From: a virus
Direction: 5' to 3' (one strand)
Length of the DNA: 36,106 bases
Virus record (IMG/VR): IMGVR_UViG_3300048837_000617
Span: 1-36,106 of that record
Shown here: positions 8,237-25,175 of the stretch, piece by piece
How positions within the stretch are numbered: position 1 is the stretch's first letter
Layout: the number at the start of each line of letters is the position of its first letter
The notes under the pieces: generated by a model
Databases searched by the model: none
The model's input: the letters and a program-made list of their open reading frames with translations, nothing else
Told to the model about the DNA's origin: nothing
Translations under genes and position numbers: made by a program

Positions 8237-9604
8237 CTAGAATGGAATTTCCGCGTTATCGGTCAGTTCTGGAAGCAGGCCCTCTTGCTCGAGCCGGTCA
8301 AGAATGACCGCCACGTATAGCGGCTCAATTTCCATTGCGTAGCACGTTGCCCCAGCCCGCTCAGCCGCCACAACCTGCGCGCCTGACCCCGCGAATAGGT
8401 CAAGCCACGCGCCGCCAGCCGCATACCGCTGGCCAATCTCTTGAAACAATGCAACGGGCTTTTCTGTTGGGTGACGTCTTGACTCGCCATGCTGGCTGGC
8501 CTTGTGCAAGCCGTTCCATAGGTGATGAAAGACCCGACTCGCCCCCTTTTCAGCGCCGTCTTGCCATGCCAGTTCGCAATCTGAAAAGTCATTCCGTGTG
8601 ATGCCTTCGCGCTTATCCCAAACAAACCACGCGCGCGAAAGCGGCAGCTTGTCCGCAAAGTTATTCGCCCCCCACAAGATGGTTATTGGGGCCAGCCCCA
8701 ACAGCGGGCGCGGGTCAAACGGGCCGTCATCACCCTCAATCACTGGATATAGAACGGGGACGGGGACATAGGCATGCTTTGAGGCCCGATGGGTTGAGCC
8801 GTAACCCTCAGGGGCCTTGTCCTTAAACCCCACTGAGGGCGCTGTTGAGCGCGTTGAGCCGCGCCCCGTTCCCTGTTGCCCAGCCTTGCCCTCTTGTACG
8901 GCGTTAATGCCGTATGGCGGGTCAGTGTGCAGCAAGTCAGGGGCCGCGCCTTGCAACAGCGTTTCTCTATCCGCTGGATTGAAAGCGTCACCACACATAA
9001 CCCTATGCCGCCCCACTTGCCAAGCCTTGCCGCGCTCAACGCCATACTTGGCAGCCAACTCTTGCGCCTTGTCAATCAGCGCGGTTGAGGCCCCAGCCTC
9101 TTGCTGTTCAGCAATCTCTTGCGCCCGCTCAAGGTCATCAAGCAACGCCTGCACGTCATCGGCGTCATAGCCTGTTGCCTCAAGCAGACTCGCGTCAATC
9201 CGCTCAAGGTCTTGCAAGAGGGTTGCCAATTCGCTGTTGTGCCAGCCGCCCAACTCAGTCAGGCGGTTGTCGGCAATCAAATACGCCTCAACCTCAGCAT
9301 CAGAATTAAAGGCAATGCCCCTGACAACAGGCACATACCATTCACCGTCGCGCGCCTCAATCCGCGCTGGGGCCTTGCGCCCCTGCGCTTTCATTTGGGT
9401 CAGCGTGTCAATTCGCCCATGCCCAGCAACCATCAGGCCCGTTCGCTCATCAACCGTCACGGGCGCAACATAGCCAAACCGATTGATGGCCTTTGCCAGC
9501 GCCCCTATGTCATGGTCTTTCGGATTGCGTGAATGGCGCAACGCCGCCAGTTCTGTCAGGGCCATGTATTCAATCCGCATGGCCCCAGCGTTTTGTTTTG
9601 ACAT
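8237..9604 (-). CDS. ParB-domain DNA methyltransferase (beta-class N6-adenine/N4-cytosine)
   Basis: This 455-aa fusion has an N-terminal ParB/Srx-like domain (about 8-115; includes GLMVAGHGR and the LIADNRLTE string) followed by an amino-methyltransferase. Catalytic motif IV TDPPYG (D228-Y231) comes before the AdoMet-binding motif LDLFAGSG (404-408), the order of beta-class enzymes, with HPTEKP before motif I. It methylates adenine N6 or cytosine N4 in DNA; the target site cannot be read from sequence. Such ParB-methyltransferases are common next to phage terminases and may mark DNA for packaging or protect it from restriction. Start ATG at 9604; stop 9 bases before the small terminase ATG. 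Confidence 0.92.
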   Translation of the reverse strand: MSKQNAGAMRIEYMALTELAALRHSRNPKDHDIGALAKAINRFGYVAPVTVDERTGLMVAGHGRIDTLTQMKAQGRKAPARIEARDGEWYVPVVRGIAFNSDAEVEAYLIADNRLTELGGWHNSELATLLQDLERIDASLLEATGYDADDVQALLDDLERAQEIAEQQEAGASTALIDKAQELAAKYGVERGKAWQVGRHRVMCGDAFNPADRETLLQGAAPDLLHTDPPYGINAVQEGKAGQQGTGRGSTRSTAPSVGFKDKAPEGYGSTHRASKHAYVPVPVLYPVIEGDDGPFDPRPLLGLAPITILWGANNFADKLPLSRAWFVWDKREGITRNDFSDCELAWQDGAEKGASRVFHHLWNGLHKASQHGESRRHPTEKPVALFQEIGQRYAAGGAWLDLFAGSGAQVVAAERAGATCYAMEIEPLYVAVILDRLEQEGLLPELTDNAEIPF

Positions 9605-11129: not shown

Positions 11130-12773
11130 TTATGCTGACAGTTTCAAGACCGCCTCATCAACGCCAGTTCCAGCCGGAAACAGGCGGAAACGTGTAGCAT
11201 ATGTGGGGAGAATTCCTGTCCTCCCCGTTCGTGCTACACTTTTTTGCAACAGGGCCGTCGCGGCGGGCGTTAATTCCGCCGCGATTGGCTCCCCGTTGCG
11301 CGCGTAAATGGCATTAAACAGCGCGTGAATGATTTGCCCCCGTTCGCTGGCATTGGCCACGTCCCATAACGCCCCGATATTTGCCAACAGCGCCGCCGCA
11401 TACTCAAAGGCCGCCGCCGTCAAGCCCGCCTCAGGGGCGGGCGGTATCAGGCGCGCCCGCTCAGCATCATACTCCGCAAGGGTCACGTCACCCCTGAGGT
11501 AAAGGTCTTTCAAACGCCGCAGCCGTTCCTGAGTTTCGTCATCAGGGTCAGGCCGTGCCGCCGCCATCGGGCGGCCCAACTCAGTCAGCGCGCGCGCCCG
11601 CCAATCGTCAGGCAGCTTGAATTTGTGCAACAGCCGCCCAACGCGGGCCTCAAGGTCAGCCGCCTTGACCGTCTTTTTGCGCGCCGTACAAGGCTCATCA
11701 TGCAAGTCGCGCCGTACATCCCGATAGCATGCGACCCCGTGTACGGGCCAGCCTGACATAGCCCGCCCGCAGTCCGCGCAACGCAAGACCCCACTGAGCG
11801 GATAAACGCGGTACTTTTCGCGCCGTTGGGTCTTGCGCCGCATATTGACCCGCTTTACCTCTTGCGCCGCCTCAAACAACTCAGCCGTCACGAGCGGCTC
11901 ATGCGCGCCCGCCAGCCATTGCCGTTCGTGGCCCGCCACGCGCCGCCCGTAGGACGTTTCACCGATGTAAAAGCGATTGCTCAAGAGGTCACTGACCATA
12001 TCCGCCGTGATAAAGCCTGACCCCCGCCGCGCCGTATTCCGATAGCCCGCGTCATTCAGGGCCAGCGCAATCTTGCGCGCGCTCAGCCGCTTATTGACAT
12101 ACAAATTAAACGCCAGCCTGACCCCCTCAGCCGTGTCAGGGTCAGGAATGGCCAGCGTTTTGCTGGCCTCAGCATACGCCTCAAGGGCCGCCTGTATCCG
12201 ATGGCGCTGCTCATGTTCACATTCGCCCAATTCCGCCAGCCGCGCCGCCAATCGCTGTTTGGTTGTGTAGCCCCACGATAATTGGCCGTTGTGAAAGCCT
12301 GAGGCCGCGCGCTGACGTTTGCCCTTGCGTATTTCGCCCCTCAGATTGTCAACATAGTATTCAGCAAGGGTTGCCATAATGTGCAATTGCATTTTGCCTA
12401 TGGGCGTTGTGAAGTCCCAATTTTCGCTAATCGAAATGACCGCCACGCCGCCCGCTTGCAAGCGGTCAATAATCTGCCGCGTTCCCACCAATGACCGACT
12501 CATGCGGTCAAGCCGATGAATAAGCACAACGTCAAGCCCGCCGTCAGCACAGTCCGCCATCAACCGCTGTAGTTCGGGCCGCGCCAATGTTGTGCCGCTG
12601 ACCCCCTCATCAACATACCAGCCCGCAATCACCCAACCGCGCTCATCAGCATACCGCTGTAAAAGGTCACGCTGGGCCTCAAGGCTAAAGCCGTCATCAA
12701 CTTGCATGGCTGTAGAAACGCGCGTATAGGCCCCGACGCGCGCGCCGTTGCCACTGTAGGGCTGTTTATCCAT
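11130..12773 (-). CDS. int: Large serine recombinase (phage integrase)
   Basis: This 547-aa enzyme would integrate and, with a directionality factor, excise the phage. The catalytic domain starts VGAYTRVST, with nucleophile S20; HRLDRMSRS and the GKMQLHIMATLAEYYVDNL helix follow. A recombinase DNA-binding domain (about 215-290) and a zinc ribbon (LRCADCGRAMSG..CYRD..CTARK, about 355-395) are present, then a coiled-coil region. Start ATG at 12773 is chosen for GGGAGCGGCTCAAC upstream and because it overlaps the preceding small gene by 8 bp. A long imperfect palindrome lies in its last codons (11192-11239). Confidence 0.95.
   Translation of the reverse strand: MDKQPYSGNGARVGAYTRVSTAMQVDDGFSLEAQRDLLQRYADERGWVIAGWYVDEGVSGTTLARPELQRLMADCADGGLDVVLIHRLDRMSRSLVGTRQIIDRLQAGGVAVISISENWDFTTPIGKMQLHIMATLAEYYVDNLRGEIRKGKRQRAASGFHNGQLSWGYTTKQRLAARLAELGECEHEQRHRIQAALEAYAEASKTLAIPDPDTAEGVRLAFNLYVNKRLSARKIALALNDAGYRNTARRGSGFITADMVSDLLSNRFYIGETSYGRRVAGHERQWLAGAHEPLVTAELFEAAQEVKRVNMRRKTQRREKYRVYPLSGVLRCADCGRAMSGWPVHGVACYRDVRRDLHDEPCTARKKTVKAADLEARVGRLLHKFKLPDDWRARALTELGRPMAAARPDPDDETQERLRRLKDLYLRGDVTLAEYDAERARLIPPAPEAGLTAAAFEYAAALLANIGALWDVANASERGQIIHALFNAIYARNGEPIAAELTPAATALLQKSVARTGRTGILPTYATRFRLFPAGTGVDEAVLKLSA
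11192..11239. other. Long imperfect palindrome in integrase 3' end; candidate attP
   Basis: This 48-bp dyad has outer arms GTGTAGCA/TGCTACAC and inner arms GGGGAG/CTCCCC, placed symmetrically around an unpaired centre. This is the size and style of large-serine-integrase attP sites. Read rightward it also looks like a hairpin followed by six T, so a terminator of antisense transcripts is the main alternative. Confidence 0.45.
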
Positions 12774-13985: not shown

Positions 13986-14210
13986 TTGACCATACAAGAC
14001 AAACAGCGCCTTGCGGCGCTGCGCCAGTTATCGCCTTTTTGCTTGTTGCTGCTGGGCTGGTTAGCCCGTCAGGGCTTGCGGGGGGATTGGCTAGAATTAA
14101 GCGTTGCCGCGCTGGTAAGACTCGCTCAGGCGCGCAACCGCGTGAAGCACGTCGGCAGTCCTGTTCTCGCGGAGTGCCGCAAGCAACTGGAATTCCAATG
14201 GCGTTACTAA
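13986..14210 (+). CDS. Possible 74-aa protein from a LexA-box promoter, antisense to repressor 3' end
   Basis: The TTG start at 13986 has TTAGGGGGCGTCA upstream and is 37 bases after the -10. The protein (TIQDKQRLAALRQLSPFC...) is basic and helical with one hydrophobic stretch (FCLLLLGWLARQGL). Its last 114 bp overlap the 3' end of the repressor on the other strand, unusual for two real genes. The promoter, box and Shine-Dalgarno argue for it; the overlap and TTG argue against. If real, its place suggests an induction or antirepressor role, as inference. Confidence 0.45.
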   Translation: MTIQDKQRLAALRQLSPFCLLLLGWLARQGLRGDWLELSVAALVRLAQARNRVKHVGSPVLAECRKQLEFQWRY

Positions 14211-14432
14211 TTGCTCATCAACCGCCCCGTGCTGGTCATCTGTCAGCGCCAGCAAGTAATCTGAGGTCACCCCCAGCGTTTTTGACATAGCCGCCAAATG
14301 CTCAGCCGATGGCTGGCTAGTCCCCATTTCGTAACGATGGTACTGCCGCAGGCTGATACCACAACGGTCAGCCACGTCTTGTTGAGTTAATCCGGCGGCT
14401 TCCCTGACCGCCCTCAGGCGTGATGCTTGCAT
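14097..14432 (-). CDS. CI/Xre-type repressor
   Basis: This 111-aa protein starts MQASRLRAVR at an ATG at 14432 with GGGGGTCACACC upstream; a longer frame to 14597 runs across the operator region and is rejected. Residues about 4-60 form a classic Xre HTH (LRAVREAAGLTQQDVADRCGISLRQYHRYEMGTSQPSAEHLAAMSKTLGVTSDYLLAL). The short C-terminal part is helical, with no LexA-like protease domain and no Ala-Gly cleavage site, so it cannot be cut by RecA in the lambda CI way. It is transcribed divergently from the early operon and likely maintains lysogeny. Confidence 0.88.
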   Translation of the reverse strand: MQASRLRAVREAAGLTQQDVADRCGISLRQYHRYEMGTSQPSAEHLAAMSKTLGVTSDYLLALTDDQHGAVDEQLVTPLEFQLLAALRENRTADVLHAVARLSESYQRGNA

Positions 14433-14480
14433 TGGTGTGACCCCCGATATTTGCACAAAAAAATTCGTGCTAATACCACA

Positions 14481-14509
14481 ACTGTAATCCCACAAGACAT
14501 TGATGGCAA
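14481..14509 (-). promoter_or_regulatory. Leftward promoter of the repressor gene
   Basis: TTGCCA (14509-14504) and TACAGT (14486-14481) are 17 bp apart. It is divergent from the early promoter at 14534. Confidence 0.7.
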
Positions 14510-14525
14510 TAGTCGTATATGCCGC

Positions 14526-14562
14526 ATGCCATATTGACATACTTGGCATACGCTGGTATAGT
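14526..14562 (+). promoter_or_regulatory. Early rightward promoter with operator dyad
   Basis: TTGACA (14534-14539) and TATAGT (14557-14562) are 17 bp apart. ATGCCA/TGGCAT arms at 14526-14549 flank the -35. Related half-sites occur at 14516-14523 (TATATGCC) and 14574-14579 (CGGCAA). This is the likely target of the repressor at 14097-14432. Confidence 0.78.
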
Positions 14563-16298: not shown

Positions 16299-16360
16299 AT
16301 GCGCGCAATCGTGGGGAGCGACCCTCAAGGTTGCGCTGTACACCACAAGGATAAATCACC

Positions 16361-18990: not shown

Positions 18991-19072
18991 TTGACACGTT
19001 TGACACATACCGCTATACTACTTGTATTGATGAGCGGCGGGGCAACGCCGCGCAAGATGAGGGGAGCGACCC
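18991..19072 (+). promoter_or_regulatory. Promoter, leader hairpin and conserved ribosome-binding element of the pentapeptide-repeat operon
   Basis: TTGACA (18991-18996) and TATACT (19014-19019) are 17 bp apart, with a second TTTGACACA in the spacer. The leader hairpin is GCGGCG/CGCCGC (19034-19051), then GGGAGCGACCC (19062-19072). The layout and most bases match cassettes 1-3 at 1.4-2.5 kb. Confidence 0.88.
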
Positions 19073-19075
19073 ACA

Positions 19076-19417
19076 ATGGCAACACACTTTATCTCTTTCG
19101 GAAACGTGACCATGACCCGCAAGCAGCCCGCGCCGACTCAATATCGCGCCATCGTGGGCGACGTGGTCAAGGTCAAGGCGGGCGTTCTGGCTGACCATGA
19201 GGTTGAGGGTTTGGTCATTTCCGCCAGCAAGTCAGGGCTGGATTTGACGGTTGTTTACTATCTGACCGACGAGCGGGGCGTTTGGGAGTGGACTGAATAC
19301 ATGAGCGTTTACGCCCTGAGCGGGCTGGTCTTTGAGGCTGATGCTGAGCGTTTGAGCATGGTCTCCGCCTTTTACGAAGGCAATCTGTATGCTGAGGTTG
19401 CTGAGCGGCTGGCGTAG
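19076..19417 (+). CDS. Hypothetical protein, first gene of the pentapeptide-repeat operon
   Basis: This 113-aa protein starts at an ATG after GGGAGCGACCCACA. It reads as a small beta barrel-like domain (YRAIVGDVVKVKAGVLADHEVEGLVISASKSGLDLTVVYYL), then EWTEYMSVYAL and a C-terminal helix. No family recognised. An SH3- or Tudor-like barrel is possible. The next gene begins 33 bp on, after its own copy of GGGAGCGAC. Confidence 0.75.
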   Translation: MATHFISFGNVTMTRKQPAPTQYRAIVGDVVKVKAGVLADHEVEGLVISASKSGLDLTVVYYLTDERGVWEWTEYMSVYALSGLVFEADAERLSMVSAFYEGNLYAEVAERLA

Positions 19418-19450
19418 CCGCTCAGTCTTATTCATCAAAAGGGGAGCGAC

Positions 19451-20122
19451 ATGAATATTGGCACATACGAATACCGCAAGTTTCAAACCATCATGGCCCG
19501 CCGTCAGGCGGCCCTATATCCGATTGGCCGCACGGGCGCGGGTCACTGGCGGCTGAGCGCGGGCGAAATTGCCAACGCTGTTGAGGCGAATTTCAAAGAC
19601 TATTCGCATGGCTGGCTCAAGGCTGAGGCAATTGACAACCTCAACCTTGAGGGGGCCGACTTCGGCAATGCTCAATTGGCGTGGGTTGAATTCCGCAATT
19701 GCAACCTTGAGGGCGCAAATTTCGACAACGCCAGCCTTGACGGCGTTTCTTTCGTGGGCTGCAACCTGCAAGACGCCAGTTTCAGCGGGGTTGAGGCCAT
19801 CAACGTGCGAATGACCAATTGTGACTTGAAAGGCGTGAATTGGGGTGACCCGCGCCTGTTGCTCAGCCTTGACGTTTCCGACTCATTGCTTGACGCCAGC
19901 CTGTTTCTGGCCAGCGTGACCCTGCCCCGCATGGGCGCAGCGGTTGAAACGTTGCAAGCCTTTGACTTTGGTGACGGGCTGAAATTCATGGTTGACGGGG
20001 TTGAGGCGGGTTATCAAAAGTTCCGCCTGATGATTGCCGCCAGCAAGGGGCCTGACTCGCTGTACTTTGACGCCGCCGCCGCCATTCTCAGGAGCCACGC
20101 GGTTTGGCAAGGGGCTAAGTGA
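19451..20122 (+). CDS. Pentapeptide-repeat protein 1
   Basis: This 223-aa protein has about 13 A(D/N)Lxx-type repeats (residues ~62-132: NLEGA, DFGNA, EFRNC, NLEGA, NFDNA, SLDGV and so on), which form a right-handed square beta helix. It is flanked by conserved ends shared with its three neighbours: an N-terminal GHWRLSAGEIANAVEANF and a C-terminal DSLYFDAAAAILRSHAVW. Pentapeptide proteins of the MfpA/Qnr kind mimic B-DNA and bind gyrase; these helices are shorter, so that function is only a possibility. Start ATG directly after GGGGAGCGAC. Confidence 0.9.
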   Translation: MNIGTYEYRKFQTIMARRQAALYPIGRTGAGHWRLSAGEIANAVEANFKDYSHGWLKAEAIDNLNLEGADFGNAQLAWVEFRNCNLEGANFDNASLDGVSFVGCNLQDASFSGVEAINVRMTNCDLKGVNWGDPRLLLSLDVSDSLLDASLFLASVTLPRMGAAVETLQAFDFGDGLKFMVDGVEAGYQKFRLMIAASKGPDSLYFDAAAAILRSHAVWQGAK

Positions 20123-20811
20123 TGACAGACAAAATTACCCCGATGGGCTTTGGTGAATTGGGCGCGCTGAAAAGGCGCGCCCAAGAGGGCGAGCCCTATT
20201 GGGCCGCGACCGCTGATGAGGTCTTGCGCGCATACGCGGCGGGCCATCGTAATTTTGACTATGCCGACTTGCGCGGTCAGTCATTCCGCGCCCAGCGGTT
20301 GACGGGCATTAGCCTCAACAGCGCCGCGCTCAGCAATTGCGACTTTCGTTTTGCCAATCTTAGCGGGGCAAACCTGCGCGGGGCGTTCTGTCACAAGGCT
20401 CATTTTGAGGGGGCATGGCTGACACATGCGCGGCTCAGGGGGGCATTGCTCAAGACGGCTGAGGTTTGGGCTTTCCAAATCATCACCGCCCATTTCGCGG
20501 GGGCTTACTTGCCCCGCAGCGTTTTCGCGGCTGAAATTGCCCTACCCAATATGTCAAGCCGTGACGACTCGCTCAAAGGCTACGCCGAATATTCAGGCGA
20601 GTTGCTGACGTTGCGCGCGGGCTGTTTTGAGGGCAACCCCCTTGAGTTCATTGAGGCGGTCAAAGCGCGGCATGGCGAAGAGTCGCTGTATGTTGACGCG
20701 CTGGGCCTAATCCTCAAGGCATATGACCGCTGGCTTCCAACCGCCCGCCCCGATGGCGCTGACGACGCCATCTATGAGGCTGAAGCCCGCGCCTTTGACG
20801 TTTCAATGTAG
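20122..20811 (+). CDS. Pentapeptide-repeat protein 2
   Basis: This 229-aa protein overlaps the previous stop (TGATG). It has about 14 repeats (NFDYA, DLRGQ, SFRAQ, RLTGI, SLNSA, ALSNC, DFRFA, NLSGA, NLRGA and so on, residues ~38-107). The N-terminal YWAATADEVLRAYAAGHRNF and C-terminal EESLYVDALGLILKAYDRW match the same positions in proteins 1, 3 and 4, so all four are diverged copies. A charged tail (about 208-229) is unique to this copy. Confidence 0.9.
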   Translation: MTDKITPMGFGELGALKRRAQEGEPYWAATADEVLRAYAAGHRNFDYADLRGQSFRAQRLTGISLNSAALSNCDFRFANLSGANLRGAFCHKAHFEGAWLTHARLRGALLKTAEVWAFQIITAHFAGAYLPRSVFAAEIALPNMSSRDDSLKGYAEYSGELLTLRAGCFEGNPLEFIEAVKARHGEESLYVDALGLILKAYDRWLPTARPDGADDAIYEAEARAFDVSM

Positions 20812-20825
20812 CCGATTGCGAATGA

Positions 20826-20845
20826 GGCGGGGCGCAAGCCCCGCC
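20826..20845 (+). other. Intercistronic hairpin
   Basis: GGCGGGGC/GCCCCGCC with a GCAA loop is a perfect stem with a stable tetraloop and no U-tract. It lies between pentapeptide-repeat genes 2 and 3 and probably affects message processing or stability. Confidence 0.7.
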
Positions 20846-20863
20846 CGTGAAAAGAGGGTCAAC

Positions 20864-21490
20864 ATGAATAGTGAAACAGCCGAATTTGTCATCAATCTCA
20901 TGAGCCGCCGTAATCATGGCGTTGGGCGCTGGGCCGTCACGGGTGAGGAATTCCGCGCCGCTGTTGAGGCTGGGGTGACGTATTTCGTGGGGGCTGACAT
21001 TGGGCCTGAGGCTGACCTTGAGGACGCGGACTTGAGCGGTTGCAATCTTCAGGGCGCGGCCTTTCGCAAGGCCCGCCTGAGCGGGGCCGAATTCGCGCTT
21101 GCCAATCTGGCTTATGCCAATTTTGATGGCGCGGACTTGACCGACGCGCAATTTGCTGGGGCCAATCTATACGCGACTGACTTTCGCGGCTCAAACGTCA
21201 CGGGTGACCAGATATGTCAGGGCGTTGGGCGGGATGTAGCCATTGATGATGACGTCTTTTTTGCGGTCATGCGCGTTTCTGGACTGCATGCCGACTTGCG
21301 GGCCTTTGAATGGGCGGGCGACTTGTACATTACTCAAGGTGATGACGCCAGCCTGCCCGCCGCCAAATTCGGCCCGTTCGTGGTCAGGAAATACGGGGCC
21401 GAGTCGATGCTTGCCAAGACGGTTGAATTGATTGAGGCCAGTTACGTTGAATTCAAGCGCCGCCAAATGGCGCGCGCGGGTCAGGCATAA
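20864..21490 (+). CDS. Pentapeptide-repeat protein 3
   Basis: This 208-aa protein starts at an ATG (20864) with AGAGGGTCAAC upstream; a longer in-frame start is inside gene 2 and rejected. It has about 13 repeats (DLEDA, DLSGC, NLQGA, AFRKA, RLSGA, EFALA, NLAYA, NFDGA, DLTDA, QFAGA, NLYAT, DFRGS) flanked by GRWAVTGEEFRAAVEAGVTYF and AESMLAKTVELIEASYVEF. It is the most regular solenoid of the four. Confidence 0.9.
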   Translation: MNSETAEFVINLMSRRNHGVGRWAVTGEEFRAAVEAGVTYFVGADIGPEADLEDADLSGCNLQGAAFRKARLSGAEFALANLAYANFDGADLTDAQFAGANLYATDFRGSNVTGDQICQGVGRDVAIDDDVFFAVMRVSGLHADLRAFEWAGDLYITQGDDASLPAAKFGPFVVRKYGAESMLAKTVELIEASYVEFKRRQMARAGQA

Positions 21491-21499
21491 GGGGGAGTC

Positions 21500-22321
21500 A
21501 TGTCAGTCACACAACAGCAGTACCCAAATTCAGATGACGCGCCGCTGACTGAGGCGGAATTATCGTCAATCCGCGCCCGCTGGCAACAGTACACCATTTC
21601 GGGCGTTCACTGGCCCGTTACCCCTGATGAGGTTGTCGGGGCGGCCCGCATGGGCTGGTTTGAATTTTCTGGCTGCGACTTGAGCGGGGCCGACTTTGCT
21701 GATGTATATCTGTCAAATTGCATCTTTGAGGACGCCCATTTCAGCGGGGCGCGGTTTGACGGGGCCTATCTGTACAAATGCAATTTTCGCGGGGCGTATA
21801 TGGTCAACGCCACGTTCATTGAGGCCCGCGTTGAGGAGTCGAATTTCACCGACGCCCTCTTGAGCAACGTGAATTTTCAATCCGCAAACTTGCATAGCGT
21901 GACGTTTGACCATGCCCGTTTCTATGCAACAAACCTCATCAACGCGTCCCTCAGCAACTCAAGTTTCGTCATGACCAACTTGAGGTCAGCCAAATTCAAC
22001 ACATATGGCCCGCAGTTGATTAGGGCGAATTTGACGCGCGCGCAACTGCCTGACGGGCTGTTTTACGCCAGCGCGCAAGCCTCAGGCATGTCAAGCCGTT
22101 ATGACGCGCTGTATGGTTACGTTGACAAGGTTGGCGGTCAGCCGGAATTAGTCTTAGCCGCTGGTTGTCAGCGCGGAAGCCCCGCCAGCATGAAACAGCG
22201 GGTCCTAGACGTCTACACCGATAGCAGCCCCTACCTCAGCGCCATCGAATTCATTGTGTCAGCATACGCCGCTTTTAAGGCCAATCAAGAGGCCGCCAGT
22301 ACCCTTGAGGAGTCAATCTGA
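21500..22321 (+). CDS. Pentapeptide-repeat protein 4
   Basis: This 273-aa protein is the longest of the four, with about 22 repeats (EFSGC, DLSGA, DFADV, YLSNC, IFEDA, HFSGA, RFDGA, YLYKC, NFRGA and on to about residue 180). Flanks are VHWPVTPDEVVGAARMGWFEF and PYLSAIEFIVSAYAAFK, again the family ends. Start ATG after GGGGGAGTC. Its stop overlaps the next start (TGATG), so the immunity-like protein is translated with it. Confidence 0.9.
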   Translation: MSVTQQQYPNSDDAPLTEAELSSIRARWQQYTISGVHWPVTPDEVVGAARMGWFEFSGCDLSGADFADVYLSNCIFEDAHFSGARFDGAYLYKCNFRGAYMVNATFIEARVEESNFTDALLSNVNFQSANLHSVTFDHARFYATNLINASLSNSSFVMTNLRSAKFNTYGPQLIRANLTRAQLPDGLFYASAQASGMSSRYDALYGYVDKVGGQPELVLAAGCQRGSPASMKQRVLDVYTDSSPYLSAIEFIVSAYAAFKANQEAASTLEESI

Positions 22322-23025
22322 TGACGTTGGCAACCTACAGCCCCAATACGCATATTGAGCGCATTAACGCGCGCCGCCGTGCCATTGCTGAAATGAATGA
22401 GGTTGACCGTTTCATCTTGCGCGGCAAAATTTGCGTCAAGGGCCGTGAATGGCTGGAAAGCAACGGCTTTACATCTATGCAGTCGGCGTGGCGCGCCTGT
22501 CACAACGCGGGCTGGCTGATTATCGCCCTCAAGAGGGTCACCATCACTGAGGCCCGCACGTATGCTGACGTTGCCCTTGCTTTAGTGGCTCAAAAGACGA
22601 TTGCCAGCCTGTCAGTCCTTGACACGGTTAAAGACCCCAGCATGAAAGGCATGGTCAACAGCGCGCTTGACTTTTTGGCCTATCGCATGAATTTTCAGGA
22701 CTTCATGGCGCACGCCCAGCGGCACGGGCTGCCCGAGTCCGACCAGCCGGAAATAGCCGCCTGTAATGAGGCCGTCAGGGCCGCGCTGTATGCCGCCGTC
22801 ATTTCGGGGCGCGCCAATGACGGGCGGGTTGACGGGGGCCGCGATTGGCGCGGGGGCCGCCTTGATTGGGAAACAGCCCACGCCGCCGACTGCGCGCTGA
22901 CCGTTTCCGATTACGCCGCCCGCGCGCTGGCCAGCAACATTTACCCCCACGATTACAAACGCATGCGGAAAGGGCAAGCCGATATTATCCGCCGCTTGCT
23001 GCCTGACTTTCCTGAGTTTAGATAG
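22321..23025 (+). CDS. Immunity-protein-like protein (putative immunity family)
   Basis: This 234-aa protein ends the pentapeptide-repeat operon. It resembles the widespread 'putative immunity protein' family of phages and bacteria: KICVKGREWLESNG...SAWRACHNAGWLIIAL near residues 36-70 (the C..GxxW...AWxxC...W pattern), an Ala-rich helical middle, and the closing KGQADIIRRLLP, like the family's CADIVRKxIP ending. The family assignment is from memory of this pattern and not verified. Whether it neutralises a toxin (for example the ADP-ribosyltransferase at 2847-4901) or works with the pentapeptide proteins is unknown. Confidence 0.65.
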   Translation: MTLATYSPNTHIERINARRRAIAEMNEVDRFILRGKICVKGREWLESNGFTSMQSAWRACHNAGWLIIALKRVTITEARTYADVALALVAQKTIASLSVLDTVKDPSMKGMVNSALDFLAYRMNFQDFMAHAQRHGLPESDQPEIAACNEAVRAALYAAVISGRANDGRVDGGRDWRGGRLDWETAHAADCALTVSDYAARALASNIYPHDYKRMRKGQADIIRRLLPDFPEFR

Positions 23026-23046: not shown

Positions 23047-23135
23047 TTGACATAAACGGCATGGCGGCGCTATAATTTGACTATCAAATGAGCGGGGCGG
23101 ATTGCCCGCCCCGCGTTATCTCAGGGGAGCGACCC
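23047..23135 (+). promoter_or_regulatory. Promoter, leader hairpin and conserved ribosome-binding element of the DUF932 operon
   Basis: TTGACA (23047-23052) and TATAAT (23071-23076) are 18 bp apart. The leader has a 9-bp hairpin GCGGGGCGG/CCGCCCCGC (23092-23114), then GGGAGCGACCC (23125-23135). It has the same layout as cassettes 1-3 and the 19-kb operon, though without the tandem TTGACAC. Confidence 0.85.
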
Positions 23136-24326: not shown

Positions 24327-24923
24327 ATGAGCCAACAAATTGACATAGAAAAAGCCCGCGCCGAATATGCCGCCGCATACCTCAAGGCCCAAGAGGCCAC
24401 GAAAGAGGCCGACGCCGTCAAGCGGGCCTTTGAGGCCGAGTCGGGCCACATCCTCAAGGCCGCGCGCGCGGCGGAGTCTGAGTTACGCGCGGCTGATGAG
24501 GCGTTGCGCGAAGCCACGCTGACCGCATACGCTCAGGGTCAGGCGTTGGGGGCGGGCCTCAACATTCGCAAACGTGACGTCCCCGCAATTGACGACTTGC
24601 TTGATTTGGTTATCGCCCTGATGGCTGAGGGGGCCGCCCAATTCTTGCAAGTCAATTCTGAATTCAACAAATGGGCCGCCAGCCCTGAGAATTGCGCCCC
24701 AATTCTTGACACGGAAACGGGTGAGTTCGTTATCCGCCCCTTGCTCAACGGCAAGCCGCTCCCTGTCAGGCTTGAGCGCGTGACCGTTCCAGTTGTGACC
24801 GCAAACGCTATCATCACCGCGCTTGACGAAGCCGCATACAACGCGCGCATGGCCCAAGCCGCTGACGAAAACAGCACGCCAGCGCACGACATGGCCCCGA
24901 ATTTTGACGCCAGCCCTCAATAA
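24327..24923 (+). CDS. Coiled-coil hypothetical protein downstream of DUF932
   Basis: This 198-aa protein (MSQQIDIEKARAEYAAAY...) starts at an ATG with TGAGGAAACA upstream. The first 75 residues form a charged Ala/Glu/Lys coiled coil; the rest is a mixed domain (DDLLDLVIALMAEG, then a beta part around PILDTETGEFVIRPLLNGKPLPVRLERV). No family recognised. It is co-transcribed with the DUF932 gene and ends before the two-way terminator. Confidence 0.75.
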   Translation: MSQQIDIEKARAEYAAAYLKAQEATKEADAVKRAFEAESGHILKAARAAESELRAADEALREATLTAYAQGQALGAGLNIRKRDVPAIDDLLDLVIALMAEGAAQFLQVNSEFNKWAASPENCAPILDTETGEFVIRPLLNGKPLPVRLERVTVPVVTANAIITALDEAAYNARMAQAADENSTPAHDMAPNFDASPQ

Positions 24924-24947
24924 CGTCTTAGCGGGCGCGAAAGGGCG

Positions 24948-24991
24948 TTAAAAGCCCTGTAGGGCCTTATACGCGCTTATACGGGCCTCAG
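24948..24991. repeat. 44-bp imperfect direct repeat, copy A
   Basis: Matches 25132-25175 at 38 of 44 positions. Inside, the TTATACGCG/TTATACGGG units repeat in tandem. It lies between the gene stop at 24923 and the terminator. Confidence 0.8.
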
Positions 24992-25031: not shown

Positions 25032-25131
25032 CGTTGCCGACTGTCAACTGCCAATGGCCAGCGCGGGCGCGCTGGGGCCGTCAAATTTCAACGCGGCGGC
25101 TCATTCATGGCTTAGAGGGCGTCAAGGGCCG

Positions 25132-25175
25132 TTAAATGCGTTGTAGGGCCTTGTACGGGCTTGTACGGGCCTCAG
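25132..25175. repeat. 44-bp imperfect direct repeat, copy B
   Basis: Second copy of the 24948-24991 repeat; here the inner units are TTGTACGGG twice in tandem. It overlaps the stop codon of the glycosidase-like gene. Between the copies, CCAGCGC/GCGCTGG at 25058-25075 forms an additional stem. Confidence 0.8.

What the first reader, a model, noticed from the sequence alone, without database searches (positions are those of the whole stretch)
19076..23025. Operon of four related pentapeptide-repeat proteins ending in an immunity-like protein
Four consecutive genes each carry a short pentapeptide beta helix (about 13, 14, 13 and 22 repeats) between the same two end motifs: N-terminal W-x-(V/A/L)-(T/S)-x-(D/E)-E-(V/I/F) with Ala and Gly following, and C-terminal (D/E)S-L-Y-x-D-A-x-x-x-I-x-x-A-Y. 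They are old tandem duplicates that kept both ends while the solenoids changed length. They overlap or nearly touch, start from one strong promoter, and are translated together with a protein like the 'putative immunity' family. Single pentapeptide proteins of the MfpA/Qnr kind bind gyrase by mimicking DNA; a four-member phage set with an immunity-like partner, in the accessory zone, looks like a defence, anti-defence or host-takeover system not described as a unit as far as I know.
Basis: partly seen in the sequence, partly recalled or inferred. Interest (0 to 1): 0.78.

Follow-up and report, generated by a model that had tools for sequence, protein, structure and literature searches.

The report
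Four paralogous phage pentapeptide-rod genes
A phage, probably of Chloroflexota bacteria, carries four neighbouring genes for rod-shaped pentapeptide-repeat proteins whose end pieces resemble those used by other phages, followed by an unrelated orphan gene; the arrangement is a tight version of something already present in other phages, and its function is still open.

Summary
P1-P4 (19451-22321) are pentapeptide-repeat proteins with homologous ends, clear for P1, P2 and P4 and marginal for P3. They form one same-strand run with a small gene before (P6) and an orphan gene after (P5), between two near-consensus promoters. The ends are not private to this operon: the N-caps of P2 and P3 match the start of generic pentapeptide models (PHROG 7713, HetL, Alr5209), and the C-cap of P2 matches an uncharacterised phage cap (PHROG 20532). 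Outside the window I found that cap on pentapeptide rods and on YdcK/hexapeptide rods, a different kind of beta-solenoid. Both staphylococcal Silviavirus genomes examined carry three pentapeptide paralogues in 3-5 kb. P5 matches no immunity family or any other library searched; P1-P4 score far below Qnr, MfpA and HalA cut-offs. Best reading: duplicated, diversified binding rods beside replication genes, for host takeover or counter-defence, target unknown. The more surprising by-products are the cap shared by two kinds of solenoid and extreme restriction-site avoidance in the whole record (GATC 0, against 54 or 104 expected by two null models).

The parts
18991..19019 (+). Promoter-like site TTGACA-17-TATACT for the P6-P5 run
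   Evidence: 11 of 12 consensus positions
19061..19070 (+). Leader/ribosome-binding element GGGGAGCGAC before P6; also exact at 16313, 19441 (P1), 23124 and, - strand, 2454
   Evidence: 9 matches at <=1 mismatch against 3.17 expected
19076..19417 (+). P6, 113 aa, unknown, first gene of the run
   Evidence: ORF; the 101-aa form from 19112 had no Pfam, NCBIfam or PADLOC hit and only PHROG noise (E 0.13)
19400..19426 (+). Hairpin with weak T tail at the end of P6: possible attenuator or weak terminator
19451..20122 (+). P1, 223 aa, pentapeptide rod, acidic solenoid, C-cap without the Cys
20122..20811 (+). P2, 229 aa, pentapeptide rod, slightly basic solenoid, clearest generic C-cap (AGCFEG...HG)
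20812..20863 (+). P2-P3 gap with GC-rich hairpin
20864..21490 (+). P3, 208 aa, shortest pentapeptide rod, acidic; C-cap only marginally recognisable
21500..22321 (+). P4, 273 aa, longest pentapeptide rod; predicted N helices, quadrilateral helix, C-terminal strands plus two helices
22321..23025 (+). P5, 234 aa, basic (pI 9.1), helical by low-confidence prediction, orphan
23047..23076 (+). Promoter-like site TTGACA-18-TATAAT, 12 of 12, of the next unit (DUF932 gene)

Best explanation
P1-P4 are four paralogous, non-enzymatic binding rods. Each has a helical N-cap, a right-handed pentapeptide beta-helix of about 13-23 repeats, and a C-terminal strand-and-helix cap related to a family widespread in phages (PHROG 20532). 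They arose by tandem duplication; repeats were then gained and lost while the caps stayed. They are expressed with P6 and the orphan P5 from one strong promoter beside the replication primase. Shown: fold family, homology of the ends (P3 marginal), generic nature of the ends (N-cap for P2 and P3, C-cap directly for P2), gene layout. Inferred: the caps seal and perhaps pair the rods; each rod's outer faces bind a host protein; several copies give several surfaces, so the set works in host takeover or counter-defence. P5 may be a passenger or a partner.
For: Pfam and fold matches. End homology. Outside-only cap profile finds P2 (E 2.4e-5) and, once P2 is added, P4 (E 1.7e-6). Cap seen in phages of many hosts and in 1 of 396 genomes of the probable host class. 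Different surface charge: D+E/K+R counts in the solenoids, with boundaries I chose, 11/4, 6/10, 12/4, 13/9. Rod-length change in other phages: L129 and L130 differ by five residues, within the rod by eye; phage L against ST64T lost one repeat by 15 bp in an early-left gene (PMC8022706, passage); GB2A lost 375 bp, that is 25 x 15, in its pentapeptide gene relative to RW (PMC11053796, passages). Setting: primase upstream, Rad52-like gene nearby.
Against: No target, phenotype or expression data. P3's C-cap is near noise (E 0.045-0.1 against best shuffles 0.24-0.28). P4's cap ranks below the best shuffle with outside-only profiles. A profile of outside caps plus P2 and P4 did not bring up P1 or P3 among the rows shown, shuffles included, so P1 and P3 reach the outside cap only stepwise through P2 and P4. 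No relative of the whole run was found, so no conserved gene order supports P5 or P6 as functional partners. A cap-bearing protein of phage Thanatos-2 lies between baseplate genes, which fits a structural role for at least some relatives.
Confidence: 0.5

Rival explanations
1. MfpA/Qnr-like DNA mimics that bind host gyrase or topoisomerase IV and shift supercoiling in the phage's favour.
For: Same fold (P4 model Z 13.7-16.2 to MfpA, Qnr and AlbG entries); P1 and P3 solenoids are acidic; gyrase is a known phage target through other peptides, and pentapeptide rods are typically dimers through C-terminal helices (PMC10886550, passages).
Against: Scores far below the curated Qnr (47.3 against 240) and MfpA (31.8 against 360) cut-offs; the P2 solenoid is slightly basic and P4 nearly balanced; the same cap sits on YdcK/hexapeptide rods, not known to me as gyrase binders; pentapeptide proteins with other roles score as well.
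Confidence: 0.15
2. Anti-restriction or other anti-defence proteins that mimic DNA or block a defence enzyme.
For: Location in the replication segment; the record bears marks of heavy restriction pressure.
Against: Site avoidance suggests that the phage cannot simply switch off those type II enzymes (inference); McbG and QnrB did not relieve BREX in the one test seen (PMC7261183, passages); no PADLOC match at E<=1, though that library holds defence rather than anti-defence proteins.
Confidence: 0.15
3. Virion-associated or assembly-scaffold proteins.
For: Thanatos-2 TH2_184 with the cap lies between gp6-like and gp7-like baseplate genes; PHROG tail profiles match the repeats of two other capped pentapeptide proteins and of RM10 gp34 and Boilgate 64.
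Against: Here the run lies in the + strand replication segment, apart from the - strand terminase, portal and tail genes; cap-bearing genes of Boilgate, RM10 and L116 lie near primase, recombination or ParB-like genes.
Confidence: 0.1
4. A toxin-immunity or toxin-antitoxin operon with P5 as the immunity protein.
For: P5 is basic and P1, P3 and P4 are acidic, so pairing is conceivable; P4 and P5 overlap by one base.
Against: No immunity, toxin or antitoxin family match for P5; no recurrence of the pair found.
Confidence: 0.04

Closest known systems
Staphylococcus Silviavirus pentapeptide sets (Stau2_115/118/120; RP15 gp101/gp104/gp110)
   Same: Three paralogues in 3.3-5.2 kb; in Stau2 the N- and C-terminal parts align while the solenoids differ (alignment without a shuffle test); positions
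   Different: Interspersed with small other genes; their caps are divergent (Stau2_120 E 0.0003 and Stau2_115 E 0.001 with the outside cap profile; not found at E<=0.001 in the larger search); no P5 match in these loci by tblastn at E<=0.01
EBPR siphovirus 1 gp3 and Pseudomonas phage Amjad_SA MAJJADAN_00005 (capped pentapeptide rods; PHROGs 31265, 7713, 20532)
   Same: Pentapeptide rod plus the same C-cap; tblastn of P2 aligns rod and cap of gp3 together (34% identity over 72% of P2, E 2e-10)
   Different: One such place in the EBPR record; more regular repeats and a different N-terminal part by eye
YdcK/hexapeptide-type phage rods with the same cap (Mycobacterium Boilgate 64, Paenibacillus Pd_22F, Ruminococcus RM10 gp34, Bacillus phiAGATE, Shewanella Thanatos-2)
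   Same: Same C-cap
   Different: The rod is another kind of solenoid (PF18836, PF00132, NF040481)
HetL and Alr5209 (Nostoc pentapeptide proteins)
   Same: N-terminal stretch leading into the rod: P2 aligns from model positions 2 and 1; P4 model Z 16.7 and 14.6
   Different: Below curated cut-offs; no phage C-cap known to me (recalled)
MfpA, Qnr, AlbG
   Same: Pentapeptide beta-helix
   Different: Qnr and MfpA far below family cut-offs; C-terminal part larger in the P4 model (by inspection and recall); gyrase binding untested

Membership tests
Pentapeptide-repeat proteins (Pfam PF00805 and clan mates) | Score above the curated cut-off | tested here: met
   50.5, 43.1, 61.3, 84.1 bits against 20.2 for P1-P4
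Pentapeptide-repeat proteins (Pfam PF00805 and clan mates) | Quadrilateral beta-helix fold | tested here: met
   P4 model only (pLDDT 77.3, pTM 0.64); Z about 14-20 to pentapeptide entries, designed ones on top; Foldseek TM-scores low, mostly 0.15-0.4 of the query; P1-P3 not modelled
Phage capped solenoids (cap = PHROG 20532) | C-terminal cap recognised by a profile | tested here: inconclusive
   P2 met by outside-only profile (E 2.4e-5; direct PHROG 20532 match weak, E 0.18); P4 met once P2 is in the profile (E 1.7e-6); P1 only with a P2+P4 profile (E 0.0018); P3 near noise (0.045-0.1); P1 and P3 not among the rows shown with outside+P2+P4
Qnr | NCBIfam equivalog cut-off | tested here: not met
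   best 47.3 bits (P4) against 240 (NF033086)
MfpA | NCBIfam equivalog cut-off | tested here: not met
   best 31.8 bits (P4) against 360 (NF000349)
MfpA/Qnr | Binding or inhibition of DNA gyrase | not testable with these tools
   needs a binding or supercoiling assay
HetL and Alr5209 | NCBIfam equivalog cut-off | tested here: not met
   HetL best 49.8 (P4) against 260; Alr5209 best 58.9 (P2) against 125
Hailong effector HalA | NCBIfam equivalog cut-off | tested here: not met
   best 32.7 bits (P4) against 250 (NF051894)
   no hit for P5 in Pfam E<=1, NCBIfam E<=10, PADLOC E<=1

The most novel reading that the evidence does not exclude
The working part is the cap, not the rod: one small phage domain that docks on a widely conserved host or phage component has been fused to at least two kinds of beta-solenoid, which serve as length-variable, stackable rods. 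The four-gene run is then a set of rulers of about 13 to 23 repeats that pair through their caps into mixed rods, with basic P5 binding the acidic ones: a phage-made multi-subunit complex of which I found no description.
Probability: 0.1. Interest if true: 0.75.

Novelty: new variant of a known kind. Interest (0 to 1): 0.42.

Why it matters
It replaces a one-off oddity by a testable family: a phage cap domain without assigned function (PHROG 20532; no Pfam or NCBIfam model covering it came up for the capped proteins scanned) that occurs on two kinds of beta-solenoid in phages of many hosts. A run of four natural paralogues with different rods and related caps is a good experimental entry point for asking what the cap does and whether the rods bind gyrase, defence enzymes or something else.

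Tried and rejected
Relatives of the whole run: word scans of viral contigs with P5, P4 and P2 gave 13, 1 and 7 stretches, none confirmed; P2+P4 alignment 41 stretches, none confirmed; primase no stretch; P5 in genome contigs 32 stretches, none confirmed. P1-P4 profile and P5: 0 of 30 chosen terminase-related records each (30 of the 80 loci fetched). P5 in 396 genomes of the probable host class: 1 match at E 6.7e-4 per genome, about what chance gives over 396 genomes. P5 tblastn in phages and plasmids: none. P5 and P6 tblastn at E<=0.01 in the loci then held, L006-L128: no row. Isolated caps of P2 and P4 by tblastn in phages at E<=1: 1 and 37 records, weak short matches only. Most of these scans need near-exact words or close similarity, so absence is weak evidence.

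P5 as a relative of the N-caps: rejected (z -0.1 to 0.8). P5 structure: single-sequence model pLDDT 38.2, unusable, no fold search made. Cap as a methionine-sulfoxide-reductase-like motif: one phmmer hit at E 0.0085, not repeated with another cap or with the cap profile at E<=1; dropped. The cap was not modelled alone, so its fold was not compared with others. Literature: searches; in the 8-20 rows listed for each I saw no paper on a phage operon of pentapeptide paralogues or on this cap. I read listings and the passages cited, not whole papers, several searches matched hundreds to thousands of papers, and the library lacks most subscription journals.
Full report
What is there. The window is a 36,106-base virus record, 58% G+C, with structural genes on the - strand (terminase, portal, tail), a serine integrase (11133-12773, -) and an HTH repressor-like gene (14100-14546, -), and a + strand segment with a Rad52-like gene, a primase with DUF3987, the run under study, and a DUF932 gene. 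Its best terminase relatives in genomes are 53% identical in a Chloroflexi MAG and 45% in an Anaerolineae MAG (the best two of 4 relatives confirmed from 13 stretches; the other two, 26%, lie in a Bathyarchaeota and a Lachnospiraceae MAG), so the host is probably in Chloroflexota (inference).

The run. P6 (19076-19417), P1 (19451-20122), P2 (20122-20811), P3 (20864-21490), P4 (21500-22321) and P5 (22321-23025) follow one another on the + strand. Promoter-like sites with 11 and 12 of 12 consensus positions lie before P6 and before the next unit. Both units and the primase gene share the leader GGGGAGCGACCC, without mismatch. The run is not seamless: a hairpin ends P6 and another fills the P2-P3 gap. 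Within the record, P4 finds only itself and P1-P3 (5 places at E<=0.001).

The four proteins. All pass Pfam's pentapeptide cut-off. A model of P4 from the four-row alignment (pLDDT 77.3, under 50 at 1-11, 168-176 and 269-273) shows N-terminal helices, a regular quadrilateral helix, two long strands and two C-terminal helices. It matches solved and designed pentapeptide proteins at Z about 14-20, although Foldseek's TM-scores are low. The ends are homologous: C ends are linked P2-P4 (z 18.7), P1-P2 (z 11.9) and P3-P4 (z 5.5), with the other three pairs at z 1.4-2.3; N ends reach z 3.0-5.9 in the six pairs. A P2+P4 profile finds P1 at E 0.0018; P3 stays near noise at 0.045-0.1. By eye, repeats number about 14, 18, 13 and 23.

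The ends are generic, in part. P2 matches Alr5209 and HetL models from positions 1 and 2. The matches of P1 and P4 to these models start inside the rod, so their N-caps were not shown to be generic. For the C-cap, tblastn with the cap of EBPR siphovirus gp3 found 17 of 50,697 phage records, itself included. A profile of 8 outside caps, with no window sequence, found P2 at E 2.4e-5 above all 1000 shuffles; P4 ranked below one shuffle, and P1 and P3 were not among the rows shown. With P2 added, P4 is found at E 1.7e-6; with P2 and P4 added, P1 and P3 still do not appear among the rows shown. The cap corresponds to PHROG 20532: EBPR gp3, Amjad_SA, Boilgate, Pd_22F, RM10 and L116, 6 of 6 scanned, match it.

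Two kinds of rod carry the cap. Of 10 outside proteins scanned in Pfam, five have pentapeptide repeats, four match YdcK-solenoid or hexapeptide models, and Pd_22F has no Pfam hit but matches NCBIfam YdcK at E 9.7e-26. Two of the ten, RW gp16 and Stau2_120, have divergent caps (E 0.015 and 0.0003; neither found at E<=0.001), and Boilgate is the weakest found (E 9e-10). Hexapeptide solenoids are left-handed and pentapeptide ones right-handed (recalled). An extra scan returned 8 confirmed loci of 80 stretches, one of them (L132) the contig already held as L101; 7 of the 8 pass the cap profile at E<=0.001 (L136 does not), two of them on YdcK-like rods by eye (L133, L134). Two closely related rods, L129 and L130, have the same ends and differ by five residues in the solenoid, by eye.

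Precedent for sets. The Stau2_120 cap was found in 90 of 50,697 phage records with 192 places. In Stau2, three pentapeptide genes lie within 3.3 kb with aligned ends and different solenoids; in RP15 three lie within 5.2 kb, although one search counts four places in that record and I found three in the stretch fetched. So paralogous sets are a known kind of arrangement; four in nearly direct contact is a tighter version. The link of the staphylococcal caps to PHROG 20532 is weak, as said above. I looked at two such genomes and made no census of set sizes.

P5. It matches nothing in Pfam, NCBIfam, PADLOC or the PDB at permissive limits, and only noise in PHROGs; no phage or plasmid record by tblastn; none confirmed in viral or genome contigs. 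Its model is unusable (pLDDT 38.2). The immunity label is not supported; a function for P5 cannot be named.

How it probably works. Pentapeptide rods are binding surfaces; those studied are typically dimers through C-terminal helices, and Qnr and MfpA bind gyrase (PMC10886550, passages). Here the four rods differ in length and charge while N- and C-caps are kept, which fits duplication followed by diversification of the binding surface. Phage rods are plastic elsewhere: a one-repeat deletion in an early-left gene separates phages L and ST64T (PMC8022706, passage), and a 375-bp deletion separates GB2A from RW (PMC11053796, passages). In Listeria phage CKA15 a pentapeptide-like gene lies in a co-transcribed group (PMC12282133, passages). 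Position beside replication genes suggests early expression, but I have no expression data. The target is unknown. Gyrase mimicry suits acidic P1 and P3 better than P2. Anti-restriction is possible, yet the record is purged of many sites (GATC 0, CCWGG 0, CCGG 19 and AGCT 9, against 104.4, 87.7, 236.8 and 109.0 in 50 dinucleotide shuffles; a trinucleotide-based estimate gives 54, 194 and 118 for GATC, CCGG and AGCT), as if it must avoid those enzymes rather than block them; this is inference and would not bear on type I enzymes.

Verdict. A real run of paralogous capped rods, made of parts that other phages also use, with an orphan neighbour and no known function. It is a new variant of a known kind. 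The cap shared by two kinds of solenoid and the strong site avoidance deserve follow-up more than the claim of a four-protein defence unit.

Noticed in passing
window 1-36106: Extreme avoidance of short palindromes: GATC 0 (shuffle mean 104.4), CCWGG 0 (87.7), CCGG 19 (236.8), AGCT 9 (109.0), GGGCCC 0 (21.2), CGGCCG 0 (28.7), CCATGG 0 (16.8), CCGCGG 1 (29.8); GANTC 56 (90.5) and RGCGCY 64 (95.5) milder; GGCC and GCGC not depleted. Of 14 other loci checked, none combined these; L103 lacks GGCC and almost lacks GATC and CCWGG, L122 lacks GGCC, L118 lacks CCWGG.
   Followed up: partly
L094, L009, L096, L097, L100, L095, L099, L133, L134: One uncharacterised C-terminal cap (PHROG 20532) sits on pentapeptide rods and on YdcK/hexapeptide rods in phages of unrelated hosts.
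   Followed up: partly
window 8240-9604 (-): DNA methylase (PF01555) with a ParB-like N-terminal part by eye, close to the terminase genes; possible link to the site avoidance.
   Followed up: no
window 16313, 19061, 19441, 23124 (+); 2454 (-): Shared leader element GGGGAGCGAC at five exact places; the P6 and DUF932 units also have similar promoters and 5' hairpins, suggesting common control.
   Followed up: partly
window 24900-24991 and 25084-25175: Two 92-nt direct repeats, 76% alike, 184 bp apart, near the end of the + strand gene block.
   Followed up: no
window whole: TATTGACA-like words (<=1 mismatch) 45 times against 15.5 expected; cause not resolved.
   Followed up: no
L116 1486-1836 (-): A 117-aa minimal version (N-cap, few repeats, cap) beside a gene that looks ParB-like by eye, in a genome of the probable host class.
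   Followed up: partly
L099 1745-2683: Cap-bearing hexapeptide protein between gp6-like and gp7-like baseplate genes of Shewanella phage Thanatos-2.
   Followed up: no
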